Source: a virus
Strand: one strand, 5' to 3'
Virus record (IMG/VR): IMGVR_UViG_3300031688_001544
Location: 1-27,601 of that record
Length of the DNA stretch: 27,601 bases
The translations under genes and the position numbers were made by a program. Shown here piece after piece: positions 2,546-27,601 of this stretch. A model generated the notes under the pieces. The model did no database searches. It was not told where the DNA came from and worked only from the letters and a program-made list of their open reading frames with translations. Each line of letters starts with the position of its first letter. The first letter of the stretch is position 1.

Positions 2546-2824
2546 ATGGCTGGTACTGTAGTAAAAATCAAGCAGTCCTCGGTAGCGGGTAAAGTCCCAC
2601 TAGCAAGTGACCTGCAACAAGGCGAATTAGCACTCAATACAGCTGACGTCAAACTATACTCTAAGAACGGATCAGGATCAATTATCACACTAGCTAGTGG
2701 TGCTACCTCATCAGATGACTTATTTGATATGGGCGATAGCCTAGGTAATGTTATACTTGATGGCGGTGATTCTAATGATGCAGTATTTACAACACACGGT
2801 ACATATGACGGCGGGGGAGCTTAA
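2546..2824 (+). CDS. Short tail-fibre N-terminal-type protein (Mtd_N-like)
   Basis: A 92-aa protein beginning MAGTVVKIKQSS, followed by LASDLQQGELALNTAD and KLYSKNGSG. This is the pattern of the small beta-rich domain at the N-terminus of many phage fibres (major tropism determinant N-terminal type: 'rrs...aP..L..GElalN..d..ly.kn..g'). Here it is a free-standing protein that ends in a Gly/Asp-rich tail (GTYDGGGA) instead of continuing into a shaft. It probably acts as a virion connector or fibre adaptor. A weak AAGAG lies upstream of the ATG. The next fibre gene, which begins with a similar domain, starts only 2 nt after its stop, so the two are surely co-transcribed. Confidence 0.75.
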   Translation: MAGTVVKIKQSSVAGKVPLASDLQQGELALNTADVKLYSKNGSGSIITLASGATSSDDLFDMGDSLGNVILDGGDSNDAVFTTHGTYDGGGA

Positions 2825-2826
2825 AC

Positions 2827-5800
2827 ATGGCAACAATATTTAAGATAAGAAGAGATACGGCGAGTAATTGGTCATCAGAGAATCCTACATTATCAGCTGG
2901 AGAAATGGGTCTTGACCTAACAAATAACTTCATCAAGATGGGTGATGGTTCAACTGCTTGGAATGCATTAGCTCAATTCACACAAAACATTGAGAACGTA
3001 GAAGATTTAGTAGGTGCAATGGTTGCATCGAATACTGAAACATTTATATCAGTAACCTACGATGACTCAGATGGAACATTAGATTTTACTGTTCCGGTAT
3101 TAGACGAGGATAACCTCGCATCAAATTCAGCAAGTAACCTTGCTACACAACAATCTATTAAAGCTTATGTTGATACTGCGGTAGCTACTAAAGATGCTTT
3201 AAGTGAATTGTCTGGAACATTAGATGATATTACAGATGGCAGTACTTATAAAAAGATTTCAGCAACAGAAAAATCTAAACTAGCTGCTATAGAAGCATCT
3301 GCTACGGCAGACCAATCTAATGCAGAGATCAGAACTGCTGTTGAAGCGGCTTCAGATTCAAATGTATTTACTAACGCAGACCATACAAAATTAAATGCTG
3401 TTGAAGCTTCGGCTGATGTAACAGATACTGCTAATGTTGTTGCAGCTCTAAGTGCTGGAACAGGTATTGGATTATCTGCTTCTGGTGTTATTTCTGCTGG
3501 TGCTCTTGCAGTAACAACGGTACAGACTGCTTCTAGTCAAAGTGCTCATCTAGCATTAACTGCTGAACAAGGTGATGTAGTTGTAAGATCAGATGAGAAT
3601 AAATCATACATACACAATGGTGGTTCTGCAGGTAATATGACAGACTACACATTGTTAGCAACACCTACTGATTCAGTACTAAGCGTTAACGGTGTTACAG
3701 GTGCAATTACTGCTGCTCATATTGCTACAGCTGTTGAGGCAGCTAGTGGTTCAAATACATTTACTGATGCTGACCATACTAAACTTGGTAACATCGAGAC
3801 TGCAGCTGATGTAACGGATGCAACTAATGTAACAGCTGCTGGTGCTCTAATGGATAGTGAGTTAGCTGGTCTAGCTGCTGTCAAGGCAACTACTGGAACA
3901 TTCTTAACTGCTGACCAAACCAAATTAGATGCTATTGAGGCATCTGCAACTGCTGATCAAACAAGTGCAGACATAAGAGGTTTAGTCGCCATTGATGAAG
4001 ATAATATGTCTTCAGACTCTGCTACTAAATTACCTACACAGCAAAGTGTTAAAGCTTATGTTGATACTCAAGTAGCTACAGTTCCTGTTGGTGATATTAC
4101 TTCGGTAGTAGCTGGAACAGGTTTAACGGGTGGTGGTACTAGTGGTGATGTAACAGTAAATGTTATAGGCGGCACGGGTATTACAGCAAACGCTGATGAT
4201 ATTGCTATTGATTCAACTGTTGCAACCTTAACTGGTACACAAACAATGAGTGCGAAGACACTTACCTCTCCTGTATTTAATACGGGCGTAAGTGGTTCAG
4301 CTATATTAGATGAAGATAACTTTGCTTCAAATAGTGCTACTAAAATTGCTACTCAACAATCTATTAAAGCATATGTTGATGCAGCTATCTTAACAGAAGA
4401 TAATACAGACGAAATTGTTGAAGGTTCAAGCAACCTTTATCACACAACTGCAAGAGCTAGAGCTTCTATATCTGTTACAGATTCAGGTGGCGATGGTTCA
4501 TTAGCATATAACTCTACAAGTGGTGTAGTAACTTACACAGGTCCAAGCGCTGCAGAAGCCAGAGCACATATTAGTGTTACTGATGCTGGTGGTGATGGTT
4601 CAGCTGCATACAATAGTTCAACTGGTGTTATTACATATACAGGACCAAGTGCTGCTGAAGTACGTGCACATCTAAGTGCTGGTACAGGTGTTACATATTC
4701 AGGTGGTGCGTTTAGCATTGGCCAGGCAGTAGCAACAGACAGTGATGTAACATTTGATGATGTAGTTGTTAGTGGTAACTTAACCATTAACGGTACTACT
4801 ACAACAGCCGCTTCAACGAATACAACTATTGCTGATAAGTTAATCGAACTTGGTAATGGTCAAAGTGGTTCACCATCAGGTGATCTAGGTTTAGTATTTG
4901 AACGTGGTTCTTCTGCTAATGCCTTTATCGGATTTGATGAGAGCACAGACAAATTTACAGTTGGTACAGGTACATTTACAGGTGCTTCAACTGGCAACCT
5001 ATCAATTACAACAGGTACTCTTGTTGCTAATATCGAAGCTGCAACGGTGGTTACTACTGGTAATATAACGGTTGGTGGTACGGTTGACGGACGTGATATG
5101 CAAACAGACGGTACGAAGCTAGATGCTATAGAAGCTTCTGCTACAGCCGATCAGACTGGTGCACAGATTAAAACATTATATCAAGCAGAAAGTTCAGCCT
5201 TTACAGATTCACAGTTTAGTAAGTTAGCAAATATAGAAACTGCTGCTGATGTAACTGATGCTACGAATGTTAATGCTGCTGGTGCAGTTATGTTATCAGA
5301 TGCTACAACATCTGGTATGGGCTTTGTTATTGATGAAGATAACTTAGTGAGTGATCATGCTACTAAGGTACCTACACAGCAAAGTGTTAAAGCTTATGTT
5401 GATACAGCTATCTTAACAGTAGATTCTCTAGCAGAGATGTCTGGTACTATGGATGATATTGCTAATGGTAGTACATTCGTTAAGACAAATAATAATTTTA
5501 GTGACGTAGAAAAAGCTAGTCTTGCCACAATGGAAGACAGCGCAGATGTTACCGATGCAGCCAATGTAGAAGCGGCCGGCGCGGTTATGGAATCAGGTGC
5601 TAACGCATCTGCTAAGATACCAAACGGATCAACAGCACAAAGAGATAGTTCTCCAAGTGCAGGTTTCTTCAGATGGAATACAACAACCTCAAGTGCTGAG
5701 ATCTATGATGGAAGTGCATGGGGACTTGTTGGTGGTGGTAACACTACTGATAAAGTAATGTGGGAACATAGTTATACAGTTTCATCTAACTATGAAATAG

Positions 5801-5895
5801 CAAATGGTAACAACGCAATAACGTCGGGACCAATTACAATTAACTCAGGGGCTTCAGTCACCGTTCCAAGCGGATCGAGCTGGGCGATAATATAA
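2827..5895 (+). CDS. Long tail-fibre / structural repeat protein with Mtd_N-like head
   Basis: A 1022-aa protein with a GGGGGAG ribosome-binding site at the preceding gene's end. Residues 1-50 (MATIFKIRRDTASNW, LSAGEMGLDL, KMGDGSTAWNAL) match the Mtd_N-type fibre head. The shaft holds four copies of a 24-residue DEDN...QQSxKAYVD module (from residues 93, 390, 495 and 836), several EASATADQ / ADVTDATNV / DADHTKL units, and a tandem 34-residue pair around residues 549-616 (ISVTD.GGDGS...TYTGPSAAE). The C-terminus (about 930-1022) has a DSSPSAGFFRWNTTT and EIYDGSAWG segment, common in marine phage fibres before the tip, and ends SVTVPSGSSWAII. It shares shaft modules with the next gene. It probably forms a trimeric fibre; receptor binding is inferred. 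Confidence 0.85.
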   Translation: MATIFKIRRDTASNWSSENPTLSAGEMGLDLTNNFIKMGDGSTAWNALAQFTQNIENVEDLVGAMVASNTETFISVTYDDSDGTLDFTVPVLDEDNLASNSASNLATQQSIKAYVDTAVATKDALSELSGTLDDITDGSTYKKISATEKSKLAAIEASATADQSNAEIRTAVEAASDSNVFTNADHTKLNAVEASADVTDTANVVAALSAGTGIGLSASGVISAGALAVTTVQTASSQSAHLALTAEQGDVVVRSDENKSYIHNGGSAGNMTDYTLLATPTDSVLSVNGVTGAITAAHIATAVEAASGSNTFTDADHTKLGNIETAADVTDATNVTAAGALMDSELAGLAAVKATTGTFLTADQTKLDAIEASATADQTSADIRGLVAIDEDNMSSDSATKLPTQQSVKAYVDTQVATVPVGDITSVVAGTGLTGGGTSGDVTVNVIGGTGITANADDIAIDSTVATLTGTQTMSAKTLTSPVFNTGVSGSAILDEDNFASNSATKIATQQSIKAYVDAAILTEDNTDEIVEGSSNLYHTTARARASISVTDSGGDGSLAYNSTSGVVTYTGPSAAEARAHISVTDAGGDGSAAYNSSTGVITYTGPSAAEVRAHLSAGTGVTYSGGAFSIGQAVATDSDVTFDDVVVSGNLTINGTTTTAASTNTTIADKLIELGNGQSGSPSGDLGLVFERGSSANAFIGFDESTDKFTVGTGTFTGASTGNLSITTGTLVANIEAATVVTTGNITVGGTVDGRDMQTDGTKLDAIEASATADQTGAQIKTLYQAESSAFTDSQFSKLANIETAADVTDATNVNAAGAVMLSDATTSGMGFVIDEDNLVSDHATKVPTQQSVKAYVDTAILTVDSLAEMSGTMDDIANGSTFVKTNNNFSDVEKASLATMEDSADVTDAANVEAAGAVMESGANASAKIPNGSTAQRDSSPSAGFFRWNTTTSSAEIYDGSAWGLVGGGNTTDKVMWEHSYTVSSNYEIANGNNAITSGPITINSGASVTVPSGSSWAII

Positions 5896-6140
5896 AATAG
5901 GAGACATAAATGTCAAAAATTAAAATTCAGGGTGATGCAGGCGGCAGTGGTATATTTACTATCGCTTCTCCTAATTCGTCCACTAACAGAACGATAACTC
6001 TGCCGGATGATGCCGGAACGATTATTACAAACGCACAAACTGACGCGTCAGGTTATGCATGGCTTGTTGACGAAGATAACATGGCAAGTAACCTTGCTAC
6101 TAAAGTACCTTCACAACAATCAGTTAAAGCTTATGTAGAT
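3103..6140 (+). repeat. Five dispersed 72-nt DEDN...KAYVD modules across two fibre genes
   Basis: Copies lie at 3103-3174, 3994-4065, 4309-4380, 5332-5403 (long fibre) and 6069-6140 (second fibre), each exactly 72 nt. Each encodes [D]EDN.xS..A.K.x.QQSxKAYVD, with wobble differences between copies. Being in frame and nearly equal, they are natural sites for homologous exchange within and between the two genes. Confidence 0.8.
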
Positions 6141-8144
6141 GCACAAATTAGTGCTGAAAATACTCTTGCCGAAGATAACGATGTAACTATTACGTCCGCC
6201 GCGGATGGTTCAATGTTATTATACGACACAGGTACTTCAAAATGGATCGATAATGTAATGTCTGGTGATGCTACATTAGCAGATACTGGTATTCTAACAA
6301 TTGGATCTGGTAAAATTGATGCAGCAATGCACGCTGCTGGTGGTGTTGATGCTACTGCAATCGGTAACGATGTTGTAAACAGTCAACATATAGCTGCAGA
6401 CTCAATTGATGCAGAGCACTTAGCACCTAACAGTGTTAATACAGATGCTTATATCGATGGTTCAATCGTAACTGCTCACATACTAGCGGATAACATTGAT
6501 GGTACATTGATTGCAGATAACGCAATTGATTCAGAACACTATACAGATGGTTCAATTGACACAGCTCATATTGCAGCAGATCAAATAACAGCAGCCTTGA
6601 TGGCAGACAACTCAATTGATTCTGATATGTATGTGGACGGTTCAATTGATACTGCTCACATTGCAGGTTCACAAATTACAAATGCGTTGATGGCAGATGA
6701 TGCTATTGATTCAGCAGAGATTGCTGCAGGCGCAATTGATCTAGCTCATATGAGTGTAAACTCTATTGGTTCTGATCAATACGTTGACGGTTCAGTATTA
6801 ACTGCTCACATTGGTGCTTCAAATATAACAAATAACTTAATGGCAGATGATGCTGTTGACTCTGCTGAAATTGCGGATGGTGCAGTTGATCTAGTTCACA
6901 TGAGTGCAAACTCAGTAGGCTCTACTCAATATGTTGATGATTCTGTACTAACTGCTCATATCGGTGCTTCACAAATAACAAACACTGAAATGGCTGATGA
7001 TGCTATTGATAGTGCTGAAATCGCAGACGGTGCAATTGATGTTGCTCATATGGCAGCTAACTCAGTTGATAGTGCACAATATGTAGATGGTTCAGTGGAC
7101 AATGTTCACTTAGCTAATTCAAGTATTACAGTTGGTGATGGTTCAAGCACTACAGCTATGGCTCTTGGTTCAACGATTACTTTCGCTGGTACAACTAATG
7201 AGATTGAAGTAGGTGAGAGTGGTGGTACAATCACAGTTGGTTTACCTGATAACGTAACAATCGCTGGTAACTTAACGGTAAGTGGTACAAACACTGCTGT
7301 TTCATCAACTACAATTACTGTTGCTGATTCATTACTTGCTCTAGCTACAAACAATAATTCAGCTGATGCTGTTGACGTTGGTTTCTATGGTTTAATGGAT
7401 ACTACTGGTTCACAAGATGTATACTCTGGTTTATTTAGGGATGCTTCTGATTCAGGTAAGTGGAAAATCTTTAAAGACAACCAAGCAGAGCCTACTACAA
7501 CGGTTAACGTTGCTGGTACTGGTTATGCAATGGGTACATTGGTTGCAAACACTGAAGGTGCAACGGTAACTACTACTGGTAATATTACAGTTGGTGGTAC
7601 GGTTGATGGTCGTGATGTTGCTACTGATGGTACTAAGTTAGATGGTATTGAATCAAATGCAACTGCTGATCAATCATCGGCTCAAATAAGAGTCCATGTT
7701 GAGGCTGCTAGTGACAGTAATGTATTTACTGATGCAGACCATAGTAAATTAAATGCTATTGAAGCTAGTGCAACTGCTGATCAAACTAATGCTGAGATAA
7801 GAACTGCTGTTGAAGCAGCTTCTGATTCGAATGCATTTACAGATGCTGACCACAGTAAACTAAATGCTATTGAAGCTTCAGCTACTGCTGATCAGTCAAA
7901 CAGTGAAATTAGAAATGCTGTTGAAGCTGCTTCTGATTCAAACACGTTTACTGATGCTGATCATTCTAAGTTGAATGCTATTGAGGCAAGTGCAACGGCT
8001 GATCAAACAGCTGCACAAATCTTAACAGCTATTAAGACTGTTGATGGTTCTGGTTCAGGACTTGATGCTGACTTACTAGATGGTCAATCAAGTGCTCACT
8101 TCAGAGTTAACATCTATAACGCTGCGGGATCATTGCTTAACTAA
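5910..8144 (+). CDS. Second tail-fibre / structural repeat protein
   Basis: A 744-aa protein with a good Shine-Dalgarno (AGGAG, 6-7 nt before ATG). The head, KIQGDAGGSGIFTIASP then STNRTITLPDDAGTI, is a module common at the start of marine T4-like phage fibre proteins. It is followed by the DEDN..KAYVD module (from residue 54), a DGSMLLYDTGTSKWIDN segment, a long run of SIDTAHIA / ADNSIDS / YVDGS units with a 50-residue superperiod (about 190-415), a GNLTVSGT module, and a tandem 37-residue DADHSKLNAIEASATADQ array (about 575-707). It ends LDADLLDGQSSAHFRVNIYN and stops, without the tip-like domain of its neighbour. A strong terminator follows, closing the structural unit. Confidence 0.85.
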   Translation: MSKIKIQGDAGGSGIFTIASPNSSTNRTITLPDDAGTIITNAQTDASGYAWLVDEDNMASNLATKVPSQQSVKAYVDAQISAENTLAEDNDVTITSAADGSMLLYDTGTSKWIDNVMSGDATLADTGILTIGSGKIDAAMHAAGGVDATAIGNDVVNSQHIAADSIDAEHLAPNSVNTDAYIDGSIVTAHILADNIDGTLIADNAIDSEHYTDGSIDTAHIAADQITAALMADNSIDSDMYVDGSIDTAHIAGSQITNALMADDAIDSAEIAAGAIDLAHMSVNSIGSDQYVDGSVLTAHIGASNITNNLMADDAVDSAEIADGAVDLVHMSANSVGSTQYVDDSVLTAHIGASQITNTEMADDAIDSAEIADGAIDVAHMAANSVDSAQYVDGSVDNVHLANSSITVGDGSSTTAMALGSTITFAGTTNEIEVGESGGTITVGLPDNVTIAGNLTVSGTNTAVSSTTITVADSLLALATNNNSADAVDVGFYGLMDTTGSQDVYSGLFRDASDSGKWKIFKDNQAEPTTTVNVAGTGYAMGTLVANTEGATVTTTGNITVGGTVDGRDVATDGTKLDGIESNATADQSSAQIRVHVEAASDSNVFTDADHSKLNAIEASATADQTNAEIRTAVEAASDSNAFTDADHSKLNAIEASATADQSNSEIRNAVEAASDSNTFTDADHSKLNAIEASATADQTAAQILTAIKTVDGSGSGLDADLLDGQSSAHFRVNIYNAAGSLLN
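6696..7145 (+). repeat. Tandem 150-nt repeats in second fibre gene
   Basis: In-frame repeats start at 6696, 6846 and 6996, each 150 nt (50 residues: DDAIDSAEIA..GAID..HM..NS.GS.QYVDGSVLTAHIGAS.IT...MA). Each is built from about three 16-17-residue subunits, and weaker copies extend upstream from about 6400. The regular I/V and A positions suggest a repetitive beta or coiled trimeric shaft. Confidence 0.8.
7632..8030 (+). repeat. Tandem 111-nt repeats in second fibre gene
   Basis: DADH-starting units begin at 7731, 7842 and 7953, exactly 111 nt apart (37 residues: DADHSKLNAIEASATADQ, then [N/S]xEIR.AVEAASDSN.FT). A partial copy precedes them from 7632. Related but diverged units occur in the long fibre gene near 3290-3410, 3730-3980 and 5110-5280. 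Confidence 0.8.
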
Positions 8145-8185: not shown

Positions 8186-8193
8186 TATAAATA
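8186..8193 (+). promoter_or_regulatory. T4-type late promoter immediately before ATG
   Basis: An exact TATAAATA 5 nt before the ATG at 8199. With the usual late-promoter spacing, transcription would begin at or beside the A of this ATG, giving a leaderless mRNA. No Shine-Dalgarno fits in the gap. It directly follows the terminator and starts the radical SAM unit. Confidence 0.7.
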
Positions 8194-8198: not shown

Positions 8199-9656
8199 AT
8201 GAAAATGCTTAATGAAAAAGGCTTGCCTACAAGTAACACATTTTGTGCCCTACCATGGGTACATCTCTCAACCAGACCAAATGGACATATGCGTGTATGC
8301 TGTACAGCTAACGCTTCCGGTGTTCAGAATCCAGACTCACAAGATAAAGTAGACTCAGACATTGGTATTCTAAAGAATGATGATGGCATGCCTTCTAATC
8401 TTGCTAATACATCATTAGCTGATGCTTGGAATAATAACTATATGAGAGGCACACGTAAAGCAATGATGAGAGGTGAAAAGCCTGCAAGTTGTATTAAGTG
8501 TTATAAAGAAGAAGATGCTGGACATAGATCTAAGAGGATGTGGGAGACCGATAAATGGATTAAGAAACTCGGTATAGAATCAGTATTAGAAGGATACGAT
8601 CCAGAGAGTGGTCAGGTGCCACCACAAATCCGATACGTGGATCTTCGTTTAGGGAGTAAGTGTCAGTTAGCTTGTGTCATGTGCTCACCTAATGATTCTT
8701 CCGGTTGGATTGTTGAACACAAGAAGATACATCCTAAATTAAAGAACGAAAACTTAGAAAAAACAATGCGTTGGGAGAAGGAAACAGGTAAGCTTGCCTT
8801 TGTAGGTGGTAGTTATGCTTGGCATAAAAAGAATCCTATGTTCTTTGATGAACTCTATGAACAGATACCTAAGCTAAAACAATTGTATTGGGCAGGTGGT
8901 GAACCACTTGTTATGAAAGAACATTATTTATTATTGCAACAAATCATTGATGATGGTTATGCAAGCGAGATTGAAGTGAGATATAATTCAAACGGAATGG
9001 AGTGGGAGCCTGAGCTCTTCGATCTATGGAAGCATTTCAAGGAAGTTATATTTCATTTCTCTATTGATGATATGGGAGATAGGCTTGCTTATATAAGATA
9101 TCCAGCAACCTTCGATCATCTCACTATGAAAATGAGAGAGCTAGATGAATATCCTCATGGAAACCTTAGGCTTACAACAGCTTATACTATACAACTACTA
9201 AACATATGGTCTATACCTGATTTTGTTAAATGGAAATTAACAAACAAATGGAAACTGTTAAACAAATGGCCACAAGGCGGAGGTATGATTGATAATCATT
9301 TAGCATATTGGCCACCACAATTAAACTGTAAGGCATTACCACTGGACTTTAAGAAGAAGGTTACTGAGAAATATGAGGCCTTCTATCCATGGTTAGAGGA
9401 GAACTGGGAACTGTCTGGAGCTCCAAGTAAAGAAGCCTTCATGGAAAATGATTATACTATAAACAGATTAAAAGGTATTGCATCATTTATGAATGCAGAA
9501 GATTGGTCAGTACGATTACCTGAGACTGCTGAATGGTGTTATAGGGTTGCAGAAGAAAGAGGACAGAACTTTGATGAGATCTTTCCAGAGTTATCTTTCT
9601 TACAAGACTATCACACTCCACACCAAGACTTTCCTTTAGTAATTAATACTGGTTAA
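8199..9656 (+). CDS. Radical SAM protein with N-terminal twitch/SPASM-like domain (1)
   Basis: A 485-aa enzyme. The N-terminal cysteine cluster reads CALPW (C16), RVCC (C34, C35) and CIKCYKEE (C98, C101), the layout of the twitch domain that normally follows a radical SAM core but here precedes it. The core has C155-x3-C159-x2-C162 for the SAM-binding [4Fe-4S] cluster and GGEP at 233-236. The C-terminal third continues the barrel and a Trp-rich helical region without further obvious cluster motifs. By family precedent it generates a 5'-deoxyadenosyl radical; the substrate is unknown. The ATG at 8199 abuts a late promoter; an in-frame ATG at 8205 is an alternative. Its stop overlaps the convergent minus-strand gene by 14 nt. 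Confidence 0.85.
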   Translation: MKMLNEKGLPTSNTFCALPWVHLSTRPNGHMRVCCTANASGVQNPDSQDKVDSDIGILKNDDGMPSNLANTSLADAWNNNYMRGTRKAMMRGEKPASCIKCYKEEDAGHRSKRMWETDKWIKKLGIESVLEGYDPESGQVPPQIRYVDLRLGSKCQLACVMCSPNDSSGWIVEHKKIHPKLKNENLEKTMRWEKETGKLAFVGGSYAWHKKNPMFFDELYEQIPKLKQLYWAGGEPLVMKEHYLLLQQIIDDGYASEIEVRYNSNGMEWEPELFDLWKHFKEVIFHFSIDDMGDRLAYIRYPATFDHLTMKMRELDEYPHGNLRLTTAYTIQLLNIWSIPDFVKWKLTNKWKLLNKWPQGGGMIDNHLAYWPPQLNCKALPLDFKKKVTEKYEAFYPWLEENWELSGAPSKEAFMENDYTINRLKGIASFMNAEDWSVRLPETAEWCYRVAEERGQNFDEIFPELSFLQDYHTPHQDFPLVINTG

Positions 9657-10314
9657 AAGCCCAGAACTTCTCTTTACACCACCAACATTTCTTACATGGC
9701 TTAGTAAAGTTTTTAGTAACATCAGCTTGGCCTTCACAAGACCTTGTTAATTTACTTAGTGCTCCAAGGTTTTCTGATTCAAAGCATTGAGCAATAAATG
9801 ATTTGTCATAATTTCTAAATGGTTGAGAGTTATCTGCTCTCCTTGCTCCATCTCTATATACAGGTCTATCATCCCACATCTTATTCTCTTTCATAATAGG
9901 CCTTGCTGGGTTTTTAGTAACAAATCCAAACATTGATTTTAATTTATGCTTCTTCTTGTTATCATCAAATACTGCAACCCAATGTTGCTCTTCAATCTTT
10001 AAACCTGTTTTAGGTGGAGTAGGTATAACAATGTGGGTAATACAAGTCTTAGCTAATTTTAATTCTTTCTCAACCCATGCTATAACCTTTTCGGCATGTG
10101 TGACATTCCAGTCTTTAGCTGCTTGCTTCTTCTTACCTGGGTTATCGTTCTCATCTCTTTGCCATGTAGCAACTACAATCTTAGGTTTAAGTTTATTCTC
10201 TTTAATATGTCTGGCTACAAGGTATAAGCCAAGAGCAGAGTCTAGTCCACCTGACACCCATAACAGTATGTTGCCAGTCTTTGGTAATTCGATATCTATG
10301 TTTTTGTAATTCAT
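9643..10314 (-). CDS. QueC-like PP-loop ATP pyrophosphatase (1)
   Basis: A 223-aa protein, the only clear minus-strand gene. ILLWVSGGLDSALGLYL carries the PP-loop SGGxDS (21-26) of N-type ATP pyrophosphatases. Near the C-terminus, SCEG (C193) followed by PCKKCWWC (C207, C210, C213) matches the zinc site of QueC-type proteins (C...CxxCxxC). Such enzymes adenylate a carboxylate or carbonyl oxygen and release pyrophosphate. True QueC makes preQ0, but no other deazaguanine genes are recognisable here, so I infer a different substrate. A paralogue lies at 16233. It has its own minus-strand late promoter (10352-10345), giving a 25-nt leader without Shine-Dalgarno. It converges on the radical SAM gene at 8199. 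Confidence 0.8.
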   Translation of the reverse strand: MNYKNIDIELPKTGNILLWVSGGLDSALGLYLVARHIKENKLKPKIVVATWQRDENDNPGKKKQAAKDWNVTHAEKVIAWVEKELKLAKTCITHIVIPTPPKTGLKIEEQHWVAVFDDNKKKHKLKSMFGFVTKNPARPIMKENKMWDDRPVYRDGARRADNSQPFRNYDKSFIAQCFESENLGALSKLTRSCEGQADVTKNFTKPCKKCWWCKEKFWAFNQY

Positions 10315-20941: not shown

Positions 20942-21371
20942 TGCATGGATATACACACAGGTAACAACATTCAGTGATGCTGAAACGATTGCTATTGTTG
21001 GACCAGCTAATAAGAGAAATCTATATAATGAATTTTCAAACATAAAATCTTTTAAAGAAGTTAATATGTATGACTATGATCCTGCACGTAGTGATGATAA
21101 GAATATTATTAATAAAGATGTTGTATTTGATGTAGAGTTACATGAAGATCTTATTATAAATTACGCATGTGAGAAGATGTGGCCGCTGGGAGAGATGTAT
21201 AAAGATAGAGAATTCATATTGATAGGTGATAATGAGAAACATAATGGTGATTGTAATCCTATAATAAGTAATAAGATGATGGTAAAACAAAATTGTTTAG
21301 AAGAGATTTGGTCTTTTAATGAGTGTACAAGATGGAAAGGTAAATATTTTATGGTGTACGGATGCAACTAG
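20928..21371 (+). CDS. Short methyltransferase-like protein
   Basis: A 147-aa protein. TIAIVGPANKRNLYNEF (20-36) looks like the first strand and glycine loop of a class I SAM-dependent methyltransferase, and LIINYACEKMWPLGEMY (75-91) parallels LVINTSCEHMPDMLDMK of the next protein. MYDYDP (48-52) corresponds to its FFDMDP. The two neighbours therefore appear related, this one being much shorter and lacking the N-terminal 80 residues. The GxG loop is incomplete, so it may be a degenerate or partner subunit. No target can be proposed. Overlaps: 14 nt upstream, 10 nt downstream. Confidence 0.5.
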   Translation: MTKVDAWIYTQVTTFSDAETIAIVGPANKRNLYNEFSNIKSFKEVNMYDYDPARSDDKNIINKDVVFDVELHEDLIINYACEKMWPLGEMYKDREFILIGDNEKHNGDCNPIISNKMMVKQNCLEEIWSFNECTRWKGKYFMVYGCN

Positions 21372-22129
21372 TAGATACATCAACTCGTAAACGATCGCGT
21401 GAGGCAGATCACTTAGGTTCTGATATAGCAAATAATAAAACTCAAGACTTAGATATATATTATAATATGCTTAAATGGTTTCACAGGAATTATCCTGAAA
21501 GGCTAGATAGGTTTATTGAGAGTTGTTCACCTAACCAGATAGAAGGTAAGACATGGTTGGTAGAAGAGTTAGACAATGTACAGATACCACGTGATGATGA
21601 AGGCAAATTTAAGATTGAAATAGTAGGTGGTTGGTTTGGCTTTCCTATGATCGATTTGTTATATGCAAAGTTTGGTGATCAGATAAGAGCAATAGACTTC
21701 TTTGATATGGATCCATTTGCTGCTAAAGTGTTTGGTGTATATCTAAGTATGTGGGATGTAGATATGCAAGATGTTAAAATATTTACTAATACTCAGGGTG
21801 ATTATTTTAATTATAAAGAAAAGCGTAGAGCTCATTTAGTCATAAATACATCATGTGAACATATGCCTGACATGCTTGATATGAAAGAATATTACTTTGA
21901 TCCTGATAGAACATTGCTTGTATTACAAAGTAATGATAAAGATGATGAGCCTGATCATATCAATTGTGTTAAGAGTGAAGTAGAGTTAGCTGAAAAGAAT
22001 GGTATAGCTTTATTAAATGGTGGATGGCGAACAATGAAAAGCAAAGTACTTAAACGAGAAGTACGTGGTGGAGATAAGAAGAAGATCTCTTTTTGGAATA
22101 GATATATGGCGATGGGCAAATGGACTTAG
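21362..22129 (+). CDS. Class I methyltransferase-like protein
   Basis: A 255-aa protein. KIEIVGGWFGFPMIDLL (84-100) fits strand 1 and the SAM loop; AIDFFDMDPFAAKVFG (110-125) carries acidic residues at strand 2; LVINTSCEHMPDM (159-171) is the strand-4 region. An N-S/T-CEHM signature of this kind occurs in uncharacterised phage methyltransferase-like proteins. The N-terminal 60 residues are charged and helical. Substrate unknown; the neighbours suggest small-molecule, peptide or glycan modification rather than DNA methylation, and no DPPY/NPPY motif is present. It overlaps the desaturase gene by 10 nt. Confidence 0.65.
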   Translation: MQLVDTSTRKRSREADHLGSDIANNKTQDLDIYYNMLKWFHRNYPERLDRFIESCSPNQIEGKTWLVEELDNVQIPRDDEGKFKIEIVGGWFGFPMIDLLYAKFGDQIRAIDFFDMDPFAAKVFGVYLSMWDVDMQDVKIFTNTQGDYFNYKEKRRAHLVINTSCEHMPDMLDMKEYYFDPDRTLLVLQSNDKDDEPDHINCVKSEVELAEKNGIALLNGGWRTMKSKVLKREVRGGDKKKISFWNRYMAMGKWT

Positions 22130-22770
22130 AATTATTTTGGTGGGCAACAGCATTAGGCTTTATATGGTGTCAGGTAATAACTCATTACGCTGTCAGTGTA
22201 GGTCTACATAGATACTTTGCTCATGGACAATTTAGAACAAGTGTAGCACACGAATGGGGATTCATAATAGGAATTATGATTGCTTGTGTTCGTACACCTA
22301 TTGGTTGGGTAGCGTCTCATAGAATGCATCATGCCGATACCGAGGGACCATTAGATCCACACAATTATAAAGAGATAGGTTACTTAAAGGTTGCATTAAC
22401 TACGTGGTCTATACCGAAAATACCAATACGATTTGCAAAGGATCTATATGATAACCCAAGACTTGTATGGGCTCATAACAATTGGAAGATATTCTTATTT
22501 ACATACTGGGCAATATGTATGTTGATCTCTCCATACTTCTGGTGGGCTGCAGCATTTATGCCATTCATGTTTGCGAAGATAGGATTTGGTATGTTAAATA
22601 TATTTGGGCATTGGCCTACTGGCCCTAAAGATGGACCATGGATGAATTGGATATTAGGTGGTGATGGTTACCATGAACAACATCATATGCATCCGCGTAG
22701 ATTAATATTAGGTAAGTATGATCTAGGTGGTAAACTGGCGAATAGATTTTGGAAAATAAAAAAACAATAA
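22120..22770 (+). CDS. Fatty acid desaturase (acyl-CoA/acyl-lipid delta-9-like), membrane
   Basis: A 216-aa protein with the three histidine boxes of membrane di-iron desaturases: HRYFAH (H30, H35), HRMHHAD (H67, H70, H71) and HEQHH (H185, H188, H189). Hydrophobic segments lie at about 5-28, 47-63 and 123-158. The typical family length is about 250-380, so this is a compact form with short ends, but every box is intact. It would introduce a double bond into a fatty acyl chain using O2, iron and an electron donor; no donor is encoded here. In context it could alter host membrane lipids or an acyl group made by the cluster. The start overlaps the methyltransferase-like gene by 10 nt. Confidence 0.85.
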   Translation: MDLELFWWATALGFIWCQVITHYAVSVGLHRYFAHGQFRTSVAHEWGFIIGIMIACVRTPIGWVASHRMHHADTEGPLDPHNYKEIGYLKVALTTWSIPKIPIRFAKDLYDNPRLVWAHNNWKIFLFTYWAICMLISPYFWWAAAFMPFMFAKIGFGMLNIFGHWPTGPKDGPWMNWILGGDGYHEQHHMHPRRLILGKYDLGGKLANRFWKIKKQ

Positions 22771-23576
22771 GAAATAACCCTTGGGTAGATGTTCCTATGA
22801 CTGCAGATGTATGGCATTTGTTGAAGGAACAACGCGTAGCTGATACATATTACAAACGTGGTAATGGTGATGCAGCTCAAGATCTAGAATGGGTTGAGGC
22901 AACACATAGATCGTGGGTCCATGAAATTATTGATCTAGCTGAATTCCCTTATTGTTATTTTGTTAATGGTACTACTGATGCAATACATCATTGGCTATTA
23001 AGTGAAGATAGAGATTGGCAACATTACACAGGTGAGTATGAATACCCTAACACAATTAAGCAAGGCCATGAGATAACAGGTGAAGAGCATAACGACAAAG
23101 TTCTATATGTATCTAATCCATCTGCTACTGATGGCAACTTTAAAATACTAGATGTTGATTGTCCAGTCATATTAGATTGTACATATATATCATCCACTGA
23201 TATACAACATATAGATGTGCCTAAAAATACTGAACAAGTTATGTTTTCTTTCTCTAAAGGATTCGGTTTAGTTGGCAATAGATTAGGTTTAGTATATACA
23301 AAGAAACCTCATAAGACATTACACTTATTAAAAGAATTTGAGAACTGGAATTATGGTGGTGTTAAAACAATAGATTTAATCATGAGCAATTACACTGTTG
23401 ATGATATGTATAACGAACATAGAGATAAGCAAGAGAAGGTTTGTGAGATGATGAACCTTATACCTACTGATTGTTTCTTCTTGGCTAACTCGTATGATGA
23501 TTATTATATGCGTAGAAGACGGATGAAAGAAAACAGTGTGGCTCGACTTTGCTTAACCCCGCTAATAGAATGGTAG
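22749..23576 (+). CDS. Short PLP-dependent aminotransferase-like protein (fold type I)
   Basis: A 275-aa protein from TTG 22749; ATG 22797 is a plausible later start. FVNGTTDAIHHWLL (71-84) matches the G-[ST]-T phosphate-binding turn; YVSNPSATDGNF (120-131) resembles the NPxNPTG segment; VILDCTY (140-146) supplies the Asp for the PLP ring (D143); and MFSFSKGFGLVGNRLG (165-180) gives the Schiff-base lysine K170 and a following R178. These occur in the right order with usual spacing. Normal aminotransferases are 350-420 residues, so the C-terminal small domain is mostly absent. Substrate unknown; it could make an amino sugar or aminate a cluster intermediate. Overlaps with both neighbours suggest coupled translation. 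Confidence 0.75.
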   Translation: MENKKTIRNNPWVDVPMTADVWHLLKEQRVADTYYKRGNGDAAQDLEWVEATHRSWVHEIIDLAEFPYCYFVNGTTDAIHHWLLSEDRDWQHYTGEYEYPNTIKQGHEITGEEHNDKVLYVSNPSATDGNFKILDVDCPVILDCTYISSTDIQHIDVPKNTEQVMFSFSKGFGLVGNRLGLVYTKKPHKTLHLLKEFENWNYGGVKTIDLIMSNYTVDDMYNEHRDKQEKVCEMMNLIPTDCFFLANSYDDYYMRRRRMKENSVARLCLTPLIEW

Positions 23577-24499
23577 TACCTGAATATAGTGGTGTACCAC
23601 TAAGTGAAATAAATCCAGATAACGTAGCAAAGCAAATTGCCAATCAAGGTTTAGTTGTTATACGTGATAGCGGAGCAACACCTGAGGAATATGCTGAATG
23701 GTCTCTTGGCGTAGGTTATCATTTAAGTCCAGAGATATGGTGTACTGATAAAGAACATTCACATTTGTTTTGGACAGTAACAAATGAGATGATGGATGAA
23801 AGGAACCAAGGATTATTTGGTGACTATGAATTAGATTGGCACACTAACATGACACCTGTTGCTGATGCAGAAGAAGTAATAGGCTTATACGCTAAGACAA
23901 TAACCTATGACACTGAGACATGGTTTGCTAATTCAGTACCATACTTTGCTCAACTACCTAAAGAGAAACAAGAATTATATCGTAAGCTTACTGTAGTACT
24001 CGATCCTAAAAGAACATTAGGTGTTATTAAGAAGGCATGGCAACCAGCGTTTAAAAAGATATATGGTCAAGAAGTATTAGACGAGATCAATAAGAATAGA
24101 AACACACGTGAGATAGTTAACTGTCAAAACATGGAGCCTGAGAATAAAGAAAAGTTTGGTGCAAGTAGAGGTATAATGAATAACCATAAACTTGTGCCTG
24201 ATCATCCATTGGGTGTTGAAGGTTTATTCTTTAGTCCATATGAAGTGCATGGATTTCTATTAGATGGTAAACCATATGAGCACCCAGAAGATATATTCTA
24301 TGATATGTGGGTTAACTATGTATGTAATAATGACTACATATATAAACACACATGGCAAGAAGGTGACATATGTTTATTCGATAACATAATAGGTATACAT
24401 AGAAGACCAGATATACTTAAAGATAAGCCACGTAAACTATTAAGAACAGCTAAGTGGTATAAGTCACATTTAAGAAAACACCATAACTATGTTGTATAA
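23570..24499 (+). CDS. TauD/TfdA-like Fe(II)/2OG oxygenase with HxN motif (1)
   Basis: A 309-aa protein from ATG 23570 (7-nt overlap with the aminotransferase-like gene; an in-frame TTG at 23549 is less likely). GDYELDWHTNMTPV aligns with the TauD ligand strand WHTDVTF, giving H91 but N93 where the iron-binding Asp is expected. The distal ligand is H277 in FDNIIGIHRRPD, and R292 (KLLRTAKW) fits the 2OG-carboxylate arginine. Everything except the acidic ligand fits the TauD family, so it may be an altered oxygenase, a halogenase-like enzyme or inactive. The same change is present in the two other TauD-like proteins downstream. Its stop lies within a late promoter box. Confidence 0.78.
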   Translation: MVVPEYSGVPLSEINPDNVAKQIANQGLVVIRDSGATPEEYAEWSLGVGYHLSPEIWCTDKEHSHLFWTVTNEMMDERNQGLFGDYELDWHTNMTPVADAEEVIGLYAKTITYDTETWFANSVPYFAQLPKEKQELYRKLTVVLDPKRTLGVIKKAWQPAFKKIYGQEVLDEINKNRNTREIVNCQNMEPENKEKFGASRGIMNNHKLVPDHPLGVEGLFFSPYEVHGFLLDGKPYEHPEDIFYDMWVNYVCNNDYIYKHTWQEGDICLFDNIIGIHRRPDILKDKPRKLLRTAKWYKSHLRKHHNYVV

Positions 24500-24507: not shown

Positions 24508-25134
24508 ATGAGAACTAAGTATAAATTACCGACTCACGGTGAATTGAAACATATTCATATAGATCTTGGTAAGCTTCAAGCTGCCACAGATGTTCTATCT
24601 GCTGAATATGTAGATGTCAAGACCGCTAACAAAATGTTATGTGATAACCATATGGCATTGAGCAAATCTGTATACGATAACTTTAAACAAATTAATTTGA
24701 CTGAGCTCAATGGTGAAGAGTTACCGTTTACAAGTGATATAAAAGAAAGACTAAGACGTAACGAAGAGAAACTATATAACAAACCAAATGATAAACTGAT
24801 AGGTAGTTACTTTGAAGAGATAACTAACCAGTTTAAATGTGATAAGATGAGAGTTCGTATTACTAAACTCGATGGCCATACCGATGTGCCTATGCATATT
24901 GACTATGATCCTACATACGCAACAAGAGTAGTCATACCTGTATACACTAATGAGAAAGTCAAGAATGTATTTAAGGTTAAAGGTGAAAAGGTTGAGACAT
25001 ATTTAGAAGCTGGCAAAGCGTATTTCTTTAATACAGGATTCGCTCATGGAGTATTCAATGAAAGCGATGAACCGCGTATAGCATTCATGTTTAGTTTAGA
25101 TGGACAAGATGACATAACAGAAATAGAATTATAA
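24508..25134 (+). CDS. Fe(II)/2OG oxygenase, aspartyl/asparaginyl hydroxylase-like
   Basis: A 208-aa protein. MHIDYDPTYATRVVIPVYTN gives H130-x-D132 with the strand pattern of the aspartyl/asparaginyl beta-hydroxylase-like group; H180 (GFAHGVFNES) is the second histidine and R190 (EPRIAFMF) the 2OG arginine. All metal ligands are intact, unlike the flanking TauD-like proteins. It would hydroxylate a side chain or small molecule using O2 and 2OG. The gene abuts a late promoter at 24495 and probably starts a transcript with the four following genes. An N-terminal 75-residue region is charged and helical. The substrate is not identifiable. Confidence 0.75.
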   Translation: MRTKYKLPTHGELKHIHIDLGKLQAATDVLSAEYVDVKTANKMLCDNHMALSKSVYDNFKQINLTELNGEELPFTSDIKERLRRNEEKLYNKPNDKLIGSYFEEITNQFKCDKMRVRITKLDGHTDVPMHIDYDPTYATRVVIPVYTNEKVKNVFKVKGEKVETYLEAGKAYFFNTGFAHGVFNESDEPRIAFMFSLDGQDDITEIEL

Positions 25135-25135
25135 T

Positions 25136-25783
25136 ATGAATTTAGACCTAACACATTATGTCTATAAGGCAAAATGGATTGACGATGAACTTTGTGATGA
25201 AGCAATAGACAGGCTTAACCTTCAGCAGACTTGGTTGCCATTCCCTAAAGATGTAGTCAATGCATATCCAGATGAACTCAGACCACAAGATGGTATTAAA
25301 GGATCTACGCTCAGTATAGATTGGGCACAGTTCATGGGTGATCCTAATATTCCTGAGCAAGATAGAAACTATGGTCTAACTCATATGGATGACAGGCCAA
25401 CCTTAGATAAAGTCAGAGCTAGTGTAAAGAATGGATTAGATTATTATATTCACGAATATATGAAGGACATAGAGTGGTATGATTACTATACAGACTTTAC
25501 TGATCCTAAATTTATGAAGTATAGTAAGACCCATGACATGATGGAGCATTGTGATCACGTAAGATATATATTTGATGGTAAAAGAAAAGGCATCCCTACA
25601 GTTTCTATTGTAGGCAGTTTAGATAATCAGCACGAAGGAGGCTATGTGAGATTTTGGAATAAAGAAGAATACTATGTAGGTAAAGGTGAAGTCATGTATT
25701 TCCCTAGCAACTTTTTATATCCCCATAGAATAACGGAGGTCACTAAAGGATTAAGATATTCTTTTGTGAGTTGGGTATGGTAA
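25136..25783 (+). CDS. Fe(II)/2OG oxygenase, prolyl 4-hydroxylase-like
   Basis: A 215-aa protein starting 1 nt after the previous stop. YSKTHDMMEHCDHVRYIF gives H138-x-D140; YPHRITEV gives H197; GLRYSFVSWVW gives R207. The strand LDNQHEGGYVRFWN is the typical 'GGEL' region of prolyl 4-hydroxylase-like (P4Hc) folds. All ligands are intact. It is a predicted dioxygenase acting on a residue or small molecule; prolyl specificity is not implied. The TauD-like gene downstream overlaps by 7 nt. Two adjacent, unrelated 2OG enzymes with intact ligands suggest successive hydroxylations. Confidence 0.78.
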   Translation: MNLDLTHYVYKAKWIDDELCDEAIDRLNLQQTWLPFPKDVVNAYPDELRPQDGIKGSTLSIDWAQFMGDPNIPEQDRNYGLTHMDDRPTLDKVRASVKNGLDYYIHEYMKDIEWYDYYTDFTDPKFMKYSKTHDMMEHCDHVRYIFDGKRKGIPTVSIVGSLDNQHEGGYVRFWNKEEYYVGKGEVMYFPSNFLYPHRITEVTKGLRYSFVSWVW

Positions 25784-26637
25784 ATATATTAGATTACACT
25801 GATGATGAAATCAGAGACTTAGCATTAAAGATTGTCAAAGATGGTAGCGTAGTACTACATGAACAAGATCTAACACAAGCACAACATATAGAAGCATGTA
25901 AACGATTTGGTAAAATGGATCGTAATGAATACTTTATGAATCCAGTAAATGCAAGAGAGATCAGTATAGTATCCGGCCAAAGGAATGAGGAAGGTAAACG
26001 TATTGGTATGTTCGGTGATACTGAATTAGAGTGGCATCAGAATGGATCGGCACGACATGAGTTTGAAGATATAATAGTATCGTTGTATTGTGTAGAGGAA
26101 TGTATTGATACAGTTCTTTCTATATGCAGCCAGTCTGATTGCTTTGCTGAATTACCTACTGAGATACAGGAAAAATATAGAGGAATCAATATTCATCTTG
26201 ACCATGTACATGATGCTATATATAAAATATCTGAGCATGATGTTCCTGGCGAAGATCTAGAACCATCGGCAGAAATTAGAACAGGTAAAGAATTTTACAA
26301 TGATGAATCATCTAACAATCACCACGAGACAGTTGATTATAGACCACTTATAGGTGTACATCCTGTTGACGGTAGAGAATACTTATACTTTGCTTTACCA
26401 TTTATGGTTGGTGCAAGTACAAATGGTGTCATGATGACTGACGAAGAGTTTAAAGATTTCTACGATGAGATGTGGGGATACCTATTTAAATCTAAATATA
26501 TGAAGCATCACGTATTCAGAAGAGGGGACTTACTTATTATGGATCAGCTACATACAATCCATAGGAGATCACCTATTCAATATCTTGAAAGACAATTGTG
26601 GAGAACTGCATTTGACTATACCGCCATTAATTTTTAG
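25777..26637 (+). CDS. TauD/TfdA-like Fe(II)/2OG oxygenase with HxN motif (2)
   Basis: A 286-aa protein from ATG 25777, which lies inside the previous gene's end; an upstream TTG at 25771 would add two residues. MFGDTELEWHQNGSARH has H87 and N89 in the HxD position; H262 (MDQLHTIHRRSP) is the distal ligand and R276 (QLWRTAFDY) the 2OG arginine. It is nearest in plan to the truncated protein at the window end (MFGDTELGWHSNGNSRH) and more distant from the 23570 protein. Reaction unknown. The next gene starts within its last 26 nt. Confidence 0.76.
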   Translation: MVNILDYTDDEIRDLALKIVKDGSVVLHEQDLTQAQHIEACKRFGKMDRNEYFMNPVNAREISIVSGQRNEEGKRIGMFGDTELEWHQNGSARHEFEDIIVSLYCVEECIDTVLSICSQSDCFAELPTEIQEKYRGINIHLDHVHDAIYKISEHDVPGEDLEPSAEIRTGKEFYNDESSNNHHETVDYRPLIGVHPVDGREYLYFALPFMVGASTNGVMMTDEEFKDFYDEMWGYLFKSKYMKHHVFRRGDLLIMDQLHTIHRRSPIQYLERQLWRTAFDYTAINF

Positions 26638-27244
26638 TTGGACACCCGGTATGGGTGGAGATATGGTTAAAACATCTCTATTAGCTCTAATGGTTTCTGG
26701 CAATTGGGAATTTAAACCATGTCATGCTGAATTTTATAAAGATAATCCATTAGCAAATTGTTTCCCAACTTCTTTTGGATTATATTGTAATAGTAGGCTT
26801 ATAAGCTTTATTGATTGGAGAGGGCAAGTACAAAAGGTGGAACCATTAGGTACTATAGAATCAAGCCACTATGCTGAAACACAACACGAGTTTGTAGATA
26901 GTCTTATTAAAGAACATGGTTCACTAATAACCTTTCTAAGTCCTAGAAATATTAAATATCTTAAGATAGCTCAAAAGAATTGGCTAATAAAAACAAGTGT
27001 TACTAGTGGTGATAGGGATTCAATTGCTTGGTGGGATAATGAATATGAAAAGGCAATATTAAAAAGGAATGACTCTTGGTGTAAATATACTAATATCTTC
27101 TTGATGGATTCAATATATAATTGGGAATCATATGAAGCTGAATTAAAAAAATATTTAGCACGTTATGAAATTTATCCAGAAACAAATATGCATTTGGTAA
27201 AAGAATTTTGGTCTAAATGGATGGAAGAGCAAAGTATAAAATGA
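26612..27244 (+). CDS. GxGGD-motif protein, paralogue 3 (unknown; possibly sulfotransferase-like)
   Basis: About 210 aa from TTG 26612, chosen because it aligns with the start of the 18160 protein; the frame is open to a TTG at 26585 (219 aa). PLIFSWTPGMGGDMVKTSLL (about 5-24) has the same strand and GxGGDMV loop as paralogue 2, and the endings match (IYNWESYEAEL, HLVKEFWSKWMEEQ). SLITFLSPRNIKYLKIAQKNWLIKT parallels VVTFICVKDNRLYEVSKKNWLLKT of paralogue 2. It is thus a conserved small family duplicated within the locus. Fold and function are only guessed. The next gene overlaps by 4 nt (ATGA). Confidence 0.6.
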   Translation: MTIPPLIFSWTPGMGGDMVKTSLLALMVSGNWEFKPCHAEFYKDNPLANCFPTSFGLYCNSRLISFIDWRGQVQKVEPLGTIESSHYAETQHEFVDSLIKEHGSLITFLSPRNIKYLKIAQKNWLIKTSVTSGDRDSIAWWDNEYEKAILKRNDSWCKYTNIFLMDSIYNWESYEAELKKYLARYEIYPETNMHLVKEFWSKWMEEQSIK

Positions 27245-27601
27245 CTATACAAATAACAAACTTACCTAAGCAAAGACTTCAATGGGCTATGATCAAGACA
27301 CAGATCGATGGTCATAGTATATGGCATGAGCAAGACTTTACTGCTGAAGGCTTAGCAACATTTATGAAGACAATAGGTGAGTGTGAGACTCCTGATCTAT
27401 TCATGAATCCTAAGAAGACACCTGAGATCTTTCTAGTCACTGGCAAGAAGGATAAGCATGGTAAGAAGCTTGGCATGTTTGGTGATACTGAACTTGGTTG
27501 GCACTCTAATGGTAACTCAAGACATAACGTTGATAAGATATTGATTGCTTTGTATTGCGTTGAAGAAGATGATAATACTTGTTTATCTATATGTAATACC
27601 A
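27241..27601 (+). CDS. TauD/TfdA-like Fe(II)/2OG oxygenase with HxN motif (3), 3' truncated by window
   Basis: ATG 27241 opens a frame that continues to the window edge (about 120 residues visible). MFGDTELGWHSNGNSRHN gives H88 and N90, followed by IALYCVEE and CLSICNT, closely parallel to the 25777 protein (VSLYCVEE, LSICSQS). It is therefore the N-terminal half of a third TauD-like protein with the same HxN change; the distal His and the Arg lie beyond the window. The 4-nt overlap with the previous stop (ATGA) is typical of this locus. Confidence 0.75.
   Translation, partial: MTIQITNLPKQRLQWAMIKTQIDGHSIWHEQDFTAEGLATFMKTIGECETPDLFMNPKKTPEIFLVTGKKDKHGKKLGMFGDTELGWHSNGNSRHNVDKILIALYCVEEDDNTCLSICNT

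What the first reader, a model, noticed from the sequence alone, without database searches (positions are those of the whole stretch)
2546..27601. Hypothesis: a late-expressed enzyme cassette that modifies the adjacent tail fibres (or host surface)
Repetitive fibre proteins rich in Asp/Asn/Ser/Thr/Ala are followed directly by radical SAM enzymes, two intact-ligand hydroxylases (one aspartyl/asparaginyl-hydroxylase-like), PP-loop ATPases, a glycosyltransferase-like protein, methyltransferase-like proteins and an aminotransferase. Shared late promoters mean the enzymes would be made together with virion proteins. Modification of fibre repeats would change receptor binding. A rival reading is remodelling of host lipid or glycan, supported by the desaturase and glycosyltransferases.
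Basis: inference. Interest (0 to 1): 0.75.

Follow-up and report, generated by a model that had tools for sequence, protein, structure and literature searches.

The report
Viral multi-radical-SAM tailoring cassette beside fibres
A marine T4-like virus carries eight radical-SAM enzymes and helper enzymes behind its tail-fibre genes; the core of this set recurs in many other viruses and in some predatory bacteria without these fibres, so it probably makes an unusual surface decoration rather than serving these fibres alone.

Summary
After two repetitive fibre genes lie eight radical-SAM (rSAM) genes, two QueC-like PP-loop proteins, glycosyltransferase-like genes, a desaturase, an aminotransferase-like protein and several 2OG oxygenases, with T4-type late-promoter motifs concentrated in the few noncoding gaps (6 against 0.43 expected). 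The locus is the known 'host recognition cluster' of pelagimyophage-like viruses.

Late expression is supported. A dedicated link to these fibres is not. Window-type fibres occur in 6 of 95 viral loci fetched by the second rSAM and 2 of 51 fetched by the eighth, and most relatives of the fibre lack the array. The rSAM core (first, seventh, eighth genes; often the second, a GT-A-like protein and a methyltransferase-like protein) also occurs in Bdellovibrionota: the eighth is found in 17 of 290 genomes at 55-63% identity.

Viral cassettes are almost free of membrane proteins (2 of 1,106). I read them as soluble, late-made tailoring pathways that build a probably sugar-based group for a surface structure. 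The acceptor is unknown. rSAM-rich T4-like phages were reported in 2010, 2017 and 2020. The shared virus-Bdellovibrionota core was not found in my literature searches.

The parts
2443..2495 (+). two TATAAATA late-promoter-like motifs (2443, 2488) before the fibre genes
2546..2824 (+). short fibre N-terminal protein
   Evidence: PHROG long tail fibre families
2827..5895 (+). repetitive tail fibre with Mtd_N domain
   Evidence: Pfam Mtd_N 50.9 bits; PHROGs
5910..8144 (+). repetitive tail fibre with 50- and 37-residue repeats
   Evidence: TRF; PHROGs
8186..8193 (+). late-promoter-like motif just before the first rSAM gene
8199..9656 (+). R1: rSAM with N-terminal twitch/SPASM-like domain; core
   Evidence: NF033640 391 bits; core
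9643..10314 (-). PP-loop, QueC-like
10314..10352 (.). divergent pair of late-promoter-like motifs, + at 10314-10321 and - at 10352-10345
10352..11704 (+). R2: N-twitch rSAM; core in viruses
   Evidence: NF033640 359 bits; AF2 pTM 0.81
11667..12632 (+). R3: accessory rSAM
   Evidence: NF033640 152 bits, below its cut-off
12629..13837 (+). R4: accessory N-twitch rSAM
13827..15023 (+). R5: accessory N-twitch rSAM
15014..16231 (+). R6: accessory rSAM, weak
   Evidence: Pfam 23.7 bits, below cut-off
16215..17120 (+). PP-loop, QueC-like with Cys motif
17120..18169 (+). R7: rSAM with C-terminal SPASM-like cysteines; core
18160..18894 (+). unknown, same blast family as 26585-27244
   Evidence: no Pfam or PHROG match
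18869..19999 (+). R8: rSAM, most conserved core gene
   Evidence: Pfam 56.2 bits; 55-63% to Bdellovibrionota rows
19987..20217 (+). small helical cassette protein (W18 family)
   Evidence: 41-member family; AF2 pLDDT 91 on a relative
20132..20941 (+). glycosyltransferase-like
   Evidence: same blast family as 1776-2447, which matches phrog_1962
20928..21371 (+). unknown
   Evidence: no family match over a cut-off
21362..22129 (+). methyltransferase-like core partner (label unproven)
22120..22770 (+). fatty-acid desaturase; second module
   Evidence: Pfam 32.8 bits; Mosig 46%
22749..23576 (+). aminotransferase-like, weak
23549..24499 (+). TauD-like with WH-x-N
24508..25134 (+). Asp_Arg_Hydrox-like with intact ligands
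   Evidence: Mosig 49%
25136..25783 (+). 2OG-Fe(II) oxygenase with intact ligands
25771..26637 (+). TauD-like with WH-x-N
26585..27244 (+). unknown, same blast family as 18160-18894
27217..27601 (+). TauD-like, cut by the window end

Best explanation
This is the host recognition cluster of a pelagimyophage-like T4-type virus, with a late-expressed, soluble, multi-rSAM tailoring cassette inserted behind the fibres.

Shown: R1, R7 and R8 form a conserved core, in viruses usually with R2, PP-loop proteins and, in about half of loci, a GT-A-like and a methyltransferase-like protein; the small helical protein W18 is in 38 of 95. Accessory rSAMs, nitroreductases, SDRs, carbamoyltransferases and amidinotransferase-like proteins come and go. 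The core also lies in Bdellovibrionota.

Inferred: the rSAMs and helpers carry out successive radical and group-transfer steps on a small, probably sugar-based unit, which the co-encoded glycosyltransferases attach to a surface structure made late. In viruses this would be a virion protein or the host envelope. The cassette is not dedicated to the neighbouring fibre repeats. The desaturase/aminotransferase/2OG block downstream is a separate module.
For: Core linkage is seen from three query sides: R2-fetched loci (R1 in 78, R7 in 65, R8 in 59, PP-loop in 62, GT-A-like in 47 and methyltransferase-like in 51 of 95), R8-fetched loci (51 of 51 of at least 20 kb hold three or more rSAM genes), and GT-A-fetched loci (29 of 34 of at least 16 kb hold an rSAM gene).

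Bdellovibrionota: R8 in 17 of 290 genomes. In 16 R8 loci R1 is in 14, R7 in 14, all three in 13, GT-A-like in 7 and methyltransferase-like in 7.

Sugar hints: GT2, PMT_2 and UDP-sugar dehydrogenase genes beside the core in L099, GT2 in L107; a GT2 gene within 10 kb of R8 in 3 of 6 genomes.

Late expression. Soluble: 2 of 1,106 viral cassette proteins have two or more predicted TM segments. HRC placement: a VrlC-type gene upstream on the same strand in two long relatives.
Against: No enzyme activity, product or acceptor was tested. The structure of R2 ties between a sugar-nucleotide rSAM (BlsE) and peptide maturases (anSME, SkfB), so peptide and sugar substrates are not told apart. The GT-A-like and methyltransferase-like labels rest on motifs; neither had a Pfam match. 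The window lacks the common GT-A family and has another glycosyltransferase-like family instead. In L100 no GT2 gene lies near the core. Phages have few membrane proteins anyway (recalled). Many rSAMs are peptide-modifying, and the 2OG enzymes could act on protein.
Confidence: 0.42

Rival explanations
1. The cassette modifies the adjacent fibre repeats: rSAMs and hydroxylases install changes on Asp/Asn/Ser/Thr of the 37- and 50-residue repeats and so alter receptor binding.
For: Direct adjacency and late-promoter motifs before both fibre and enzyme genes; almost no membrane proteins in the viral cassettes; Asp_Arg_Hydrox-like gene in the same cluster.
Against: Window-type fibres in 6 of 95 and 2 of 51 cassette loci. 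The fibre's relatives mostly lack the array: 24 of 32 loci of at least 12 kb have no rSAM gene and 6 have one only. The core is also in Bdellovibrionota. Limits: flanks of 10 kb, and the fibre scan returned only two of the six known cassette-bearing fibre loci.
Confidence: 0.1
2. The cassette remodels the host's surface glycan or lipid, for example to block superinfection, as proposed for pelagimyophage glycosyltransferases.
For: HRC glycosyltransferases were read this way by the pelagimyophage authors (PMC7029224, passages); bacterial copies sit beside surface-glycan genes in some loci; desaturase in the second module.
Against: Almost no membrane proteins, so no flippase- or polymerase-like ones to speak of, in viral cassettes; a late motif, which is late for superinfection exclusion.
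Confidence: 0.22
3. The product is a free small molecule (modified nucleotide, cofactor or antimicrobial) or a nucleic-acid modification.
For: QueC-like PP-loop partners; R8 is nearest in sequence to anSME and viperin-type rSAMs in the PDB; rSAMs of sugar-nucleotide pathways among structural matches.
Against: R8 fails the prokaryotic viperin cut-off (40.7 against 180 bits); glycosyltransferase-like genes recur with the core.
Confidence: 0.16
4. It is a RiPP-like cassette in which many SPASM/twitch rSAMs mature one peptide or protein, W18 being precursor or guide.
For: N-twitch rSAMs resemble peptide maturases in fold; W18 is conserved in 38 viral loci.
Against: W18 is conserved along its length with no variable core and is predicted all-helical, without the strands of an RRE as I recall that fold; no precursor family was noticed, though ORFs under 65-70 aa were not listed.
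Confidence: 0.1

Closest known systems
Host recognition cluster (HRC) of pelagimyophages (Zaragoza-Solas et al. 2020, authors recalled; PMC7029224; passages read)
   Same: Large variable island after VrlC with tail fibres, glycosyltransferases and, in some genomes, radical-SAM gene cassettes
   Different: That paper, in the passages read, mentions rSAM cassettes only in passing; the conserved R1/R7/R8 core, its partners and the Bdellovibrionota copies are added here
T4-like TARA_ERS488813_N000010 with 12 rSAM genes (Nishimura et al. 2017, authors recalled; PMC5332604; passages read)
   Same: T4-like marine virus with many rSAM genes
   Different: There read as Fe-S metabolism; no cassette structure in the passages read. 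Here an A-type carrier gene was found in 8 of 25 rSAM-rich records
Campylobacter phages CP220 and CPt10 (Timms et al. 2010, authors recalled; PMC2853527; passages read)
   Same: 11-12 rSAM genes per phage, clusters with an amidinotransferase
   Different: No tblastn match of R1, R2 or R8 in any Campylobacter phage of the collection at E 1e-5, so not the same core
Pelagibacter phage Mosig EXVC030M (MT647606)
   Same: Fibre relatives and relatives of the second module: AspH 49%, desaturase 46%, TauD 35%, aminotransferase-like 32%
   Different: No match to R1, R2 or R8
NCBIfam NF033640 N_Twi_rSAM
   Same: Four of eight window rSAMs pass its cut-off; all 25 rSAM-rich records have members over it
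   Different: A subfamily label with no function named in the result; R7 and R8 are not members by its cut-off

Membership tests
Pelagimyophage host recognition cluster (HRC) | Lies downstream of VrlC in the structural region | tested here: met
   VrlC-type gene at 43.8-48.9 kb (L004's record) and 41.4-46.4 kb (L005's record), rSAM arrays following at about 62-77 kb, same strand. Mosig's annotated VrlC falls in blast family f60, whose member L094 matches phrog_358. Tested on relatives, not in the window
Pelagimyophage host recognition cluster (HRC) | Bounded by gp14 on the other side | not tested
   The window ends inside the cluster
Pelagimyophage host recognition cluster (HRC) | Contains tail fibres and glycosyltransferases | tested here: met
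Radical SAM superfamily | Pfam Radical_SAM match and CxxxCxxC | tested here: met
   Seven of eight over cut-off; the three cysteines invariant in the alignments of R1, R2, R7 and R8
NF033640 N_Twi_rSAM | Score over 170 bits | tested here: met
   Met by four (8199, 10352, 12629, 13827); not met by 11667 (152.1), 17120 (56.7), 18869 (34.8) and 15014 (not listed)
Prokaryotic viperin (NF038283) | Score over 180 bits | tested here: not met
   R8 40.7 bits
QueC (PF06508) | Score over 22 bits | tested here: not met
   Window proteins 18.8 and 14.2 bits; one relative, L096, 22.7
rSAM RiPP cassette | Precursor peptide and RRE domain | tested here: inconclusive
   W18 all-helical and not precursor-like; ORFs under 65-70 aa not listed in the locus scripts
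gtr-type seroconversion cassette | Multi-pass membrane flippase and transferase | tested here: inconclusive
   2 of 1,106 viral cassette proteins with two or more predicted TM segments, by a crude hydropathy count
Virion-modifying glycosyltransferase system | Modified virion protein shown | not testable with these tools
   Needs mass spectrometry

The most novel reading that the evidence does not exclude
Marine T4-like viruses and predatory Bdellovibrionota share a radical-SAM pathway, moved between them at least once, that builds the same chemically unusual surface decoration. It would serve attachment to Gram-negative cells in both: on virion fibres or tails in viruses, on surface fibres or the envelope in the predators.
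Probability: 0.1. Interest if true: 0.9.

Novelty: new variant of a known kind. Interest (0 to 1): 0.58.

Why it matters
Between 5 and 20 rSAM genes per record in the 25 long records examined is exceptional for viruses, and I found no product named for any of these phage arrays, noted since 2010. A defined core of three to four rSAMs with recurring partners, present in viruses and in sequenced bacteria, turns an open oddity into a pathway that can be expressed and assayed. It also shows that adjacency to fibres inside a variable island is weak evidence for fibre modification.

Tried and rejected
Rejected: fibre-dedicated modification as the main function. W18 as an RRE or precursor: predicted helical, with no Foldseek match at E 0.001 or better. 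R8 as a viperin: below cut-off. Fe-S supply as a required companion: an A-type carrier gene in only 8 of 25 records, some of them fragments.

Led nowhere: the PDB profile search with R2 gave nothing at E 0.01; with the methyltransferase-like family only E 0.064 and 0.11; with the GT-A-like family nothing; single-sequence searches with 22749 and 20132 gave only E 0.36 or worse, and nothing. The R2 model gives only the common rSAM fold, with ties from BlsE to MoaA. PHROGs on ten neighbour proteins gave tail or known-position hits only for L021 (tail sheath) and the phrog_358 protein, plus an 'HNH endonuclease' label for L012. phrog_358 was found in only 2 of 25 long records, so HRC placement is shown for the window's own clade only. 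Megablast of window 1-25000 in the phage collection: no match. The papers were seen as search listings, except the five whose passages I read.

Results against my reading: in L100 no GT2 gene lies near the core. R2 is in only 4 of 16 Bdellovibrionota R8 loci. Five of 34 GT-A loci have no rSAM gene. In relatives the late motif is before only 26 of 702 viral rSAM genes, enriched (shuffled mean 11.0, maximum 16; opposite strand 9) but sparse, and it is about as frequent before other viral genes (26 of 856).

Limits: collection scans keep the best 80 rows; loci reached by R2 hold R2 by construction; 8 of 32, 51 of 51 and 29 of 34 are counts on the longer loci only (32 of 79, 51 of 80 and 34 of 80). 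The fibre-side and R8-side loci partly repeat contigs of the R2-side loci. The tree of R8 is a quick one with a poor outgroup (four of its six outgroup rows are fragments of the family itself).
Full report
WHAT IS THERE. The window is an IMG/VR virus record of 36% G+C, without tRNA genes and without a megablast match in the phage collection. Between 2546 and 8144 lie a short fibre N-terminal protein and two repetitive fibres. From 8199 to 19999 follow eight rSAM genes, two PP-loop genes and an unknown gene (18160), then W18, a glycosyltransferase-like gene, an unknown gene and a methyltransferase-like gene up to 22129. From 22120 to the end come a desaturase, an aminotransferase-like gene, four 2OG oxygenase genes, an unknown gene (26585) and one more TauD-like gene cut by the end.

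LATE EXPRESSION. TATAAATA, the T4 late-promoter octamer as I recall it, occurs 10 times against 4.75 expected, with 1 of 100 shuffles as high. Six of the ten lie in or at the edges of the five noncoding stretches (216 noncoding bases in all), against 0.43 expected and 0 of 2,000 shuffles. They stand before the fibres, before R1, as a divergent pair between the minus-strand PP-loop gene and R2, and before 24508. In related viral loci the motif lies on the coding strand within 100 bases before 26 of 702 rSAM genes (shuffled mean 11.0, maximum 16; opposite strand 9). Before rSAM genes of the genome collection it is at chance, 1 against 1.1.

A CONSERVED CORE. Scans with R2 gave 95 viral loci. In these R1 is in 78, R7 in 65, R8 in 59, a PP-loop gene in 62, the methyltransferase-like family in 51, GT-A-like in 47, W18 in 38, aminotransferase-like in 37, SDR in 30, nitroreductase in 26, carbamoyltransferase in 15 (label from Mosig's annotation), amidinotransferase-like in 5 (that label is recalled from sequence; no Pfam match), and window-type fibres in 6. 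All four core rSAMs are in 39 of 95, or 29 of the 56 loci over 20 kb. A usual order is carbamoyltransferase, GT-A-like, methyltransferase-like, W18, R7, R1, accessory genes, R2, accessory genes, R8. Long records hold 5-20 Radical_SAM matches (25 records), and 14 of the 25 have T4-type gp23. Starting from R8 instead, 51 of 51 loci of at least 20 kb hold three or more rSAM genes and 2 hold window-type fibres. Starting from the GT-A-like family, 29 of 34 loci of at least 16 kb hold an rSAM gene.

OUTSIDE VIRUSES. A scan of bacterial and archaeal genomes with R2 gave 67 loci, mostly Bdellovibrionota by record title. R8 is in 17 of 290 Bdellovibrionota genomes at E 1e-60 or better. Rows aligned here are 55-63% identical to the window's R8, 47-50% to R1 and 40-42% to R7. 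In 16 R8 loci read (of 17 genomes; the one split over contigs was left out), R1 and R7 are each in 14, all three in 13, GT-A-like in 7, methyltransferase-like in 7 and R2 in 4. Neighbours include GT2, PMT_2 and UDP-sugar dehydrogenase genes in L099 and GT2 in L107. A GT2 gene lies within 10 kb of R8 in 3 of 6 genomes, which have 15-24 GT2 matches each. In a quick tree of R8 the viruses form one clade of 98 rows and a small one of 5, with Bdellovibrionota rows around both. This suggests transfer from that phylum to viruses, but the outgroup is poor. One 'Rickettsiales' contig (L103) has the same length as a viral record (L299), with cassette genes in both, and is probably a misbinned virus.

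THE FIBRE LINK. Scanning with the second fibre gave 79 loci. Of the 32 of at least 12 kb, 8 hold an rSAM gene: two full arrays, both window-clade contigs already known (L016 and L005), and six with one rSAM beside a carbamoyltransferase and a methyltransferase-like gene. That scan missed four known window-clade loci, so its counts are lower bounds. Together with the 6 of 95 and 2 of 51 above, fibre and array are mostly found apart. Their joint presence in the window fits a shared variable island, the HRC described for pelagimyophages (PMC7029224, passages). The two long window-clade records have a VrlC-type gene upstream on the same strand.

TWO MODULES. Mosig, a cultured Pelagibacter phage, has in its own fibre region relatives of the window's AspH (49%), desaturase (46%), TauD (35%) and aminotransferase-like (32%) genes and of the fibres (35-36%), but no match to R1, R2 or R8. 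In L354 and L355 the desaturase block lies beside other rSAM and nitroreductase genes. The blocks are therefore separable.

WHAT IT MAY DO. Between the first and last rSAM gene in 91 viral loci, 2 of 1,106 proteins of at least 100 aa have two or more predicted TM segments. Within four genes of a core rSAM, 4 of 686 viral proteins have three or more, against 12 of 136 around the bacterial cores. The viral pathway therefore probably works in the cytosol, and its product must be attached there or use host machinery for export. Carbamoyltransferase, amidinotransferase-like, SDR, nitroreductase, aminotransferase-like and glycosyltransferase-like partners read, by established knowledge of such families, like tailoring of sugars or sugar-like units. 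The structure of R2 does not decide between sugar and peptide. W18 is a three-helix protein with invariant R, H, S, Y and GP positions and no fold match. I take a late surface decoration as most likely, with the acceptor unknown.

KNOWN OR NEW. Many rSAM genes in T4-like phages were reported for Campylobacter phages (11-12; PMC2853527, passages), one TARA virus (12; PMC5332604, passages) and pelagimyophages (PMC7029224, passages). My searches found no account of the conserved core, its partners or its presence in Bdellovibrionota. The library is open-access only and holds no preprints.

Noticed in passing
window 23549-24499, 25771-26637, 27217-27600: Three TauD-like oxygenases read WH-x-N where HxD is the norm (recalled). 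Asn is also seen in Mosig, in L053, L065, L089, L354 and L355, and in a Bdellovibrionia locus (L149); L028 and L038 read WHSD and L019 WHND.
   Followed up: partly
window 18160-18894 and 26585-27244; also 313-1779: Unknown proteins (the first two in one blast family) with a glycine-rich N-terminal motif, possibly P-loop or sulfotransferase-like; the resemblance is recalled only.
   Followed up: no
L103 and L299: A contig titled Rickettsiales MAG (NZHE01000012.1, 46,940 bases) has the same length as an IMG/VR record and carries a viral-type cassette: probably a virus binned into a MAG.
   Followed up: partly
L028, L008, L013 (family f0): GT-A-like proteins of up to 1,058 aa that look like several fused glycosyltransferase domains; no Pfam match for L008's and no PHROG match for L028's.
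   Followed up: partly
L021, L045, L052, L068: A second, separate viral lineage of R8 sits a few genes behind an unusually long (about 1,260-1,360 aa) tail-sheath protein.
   Followed up: partly
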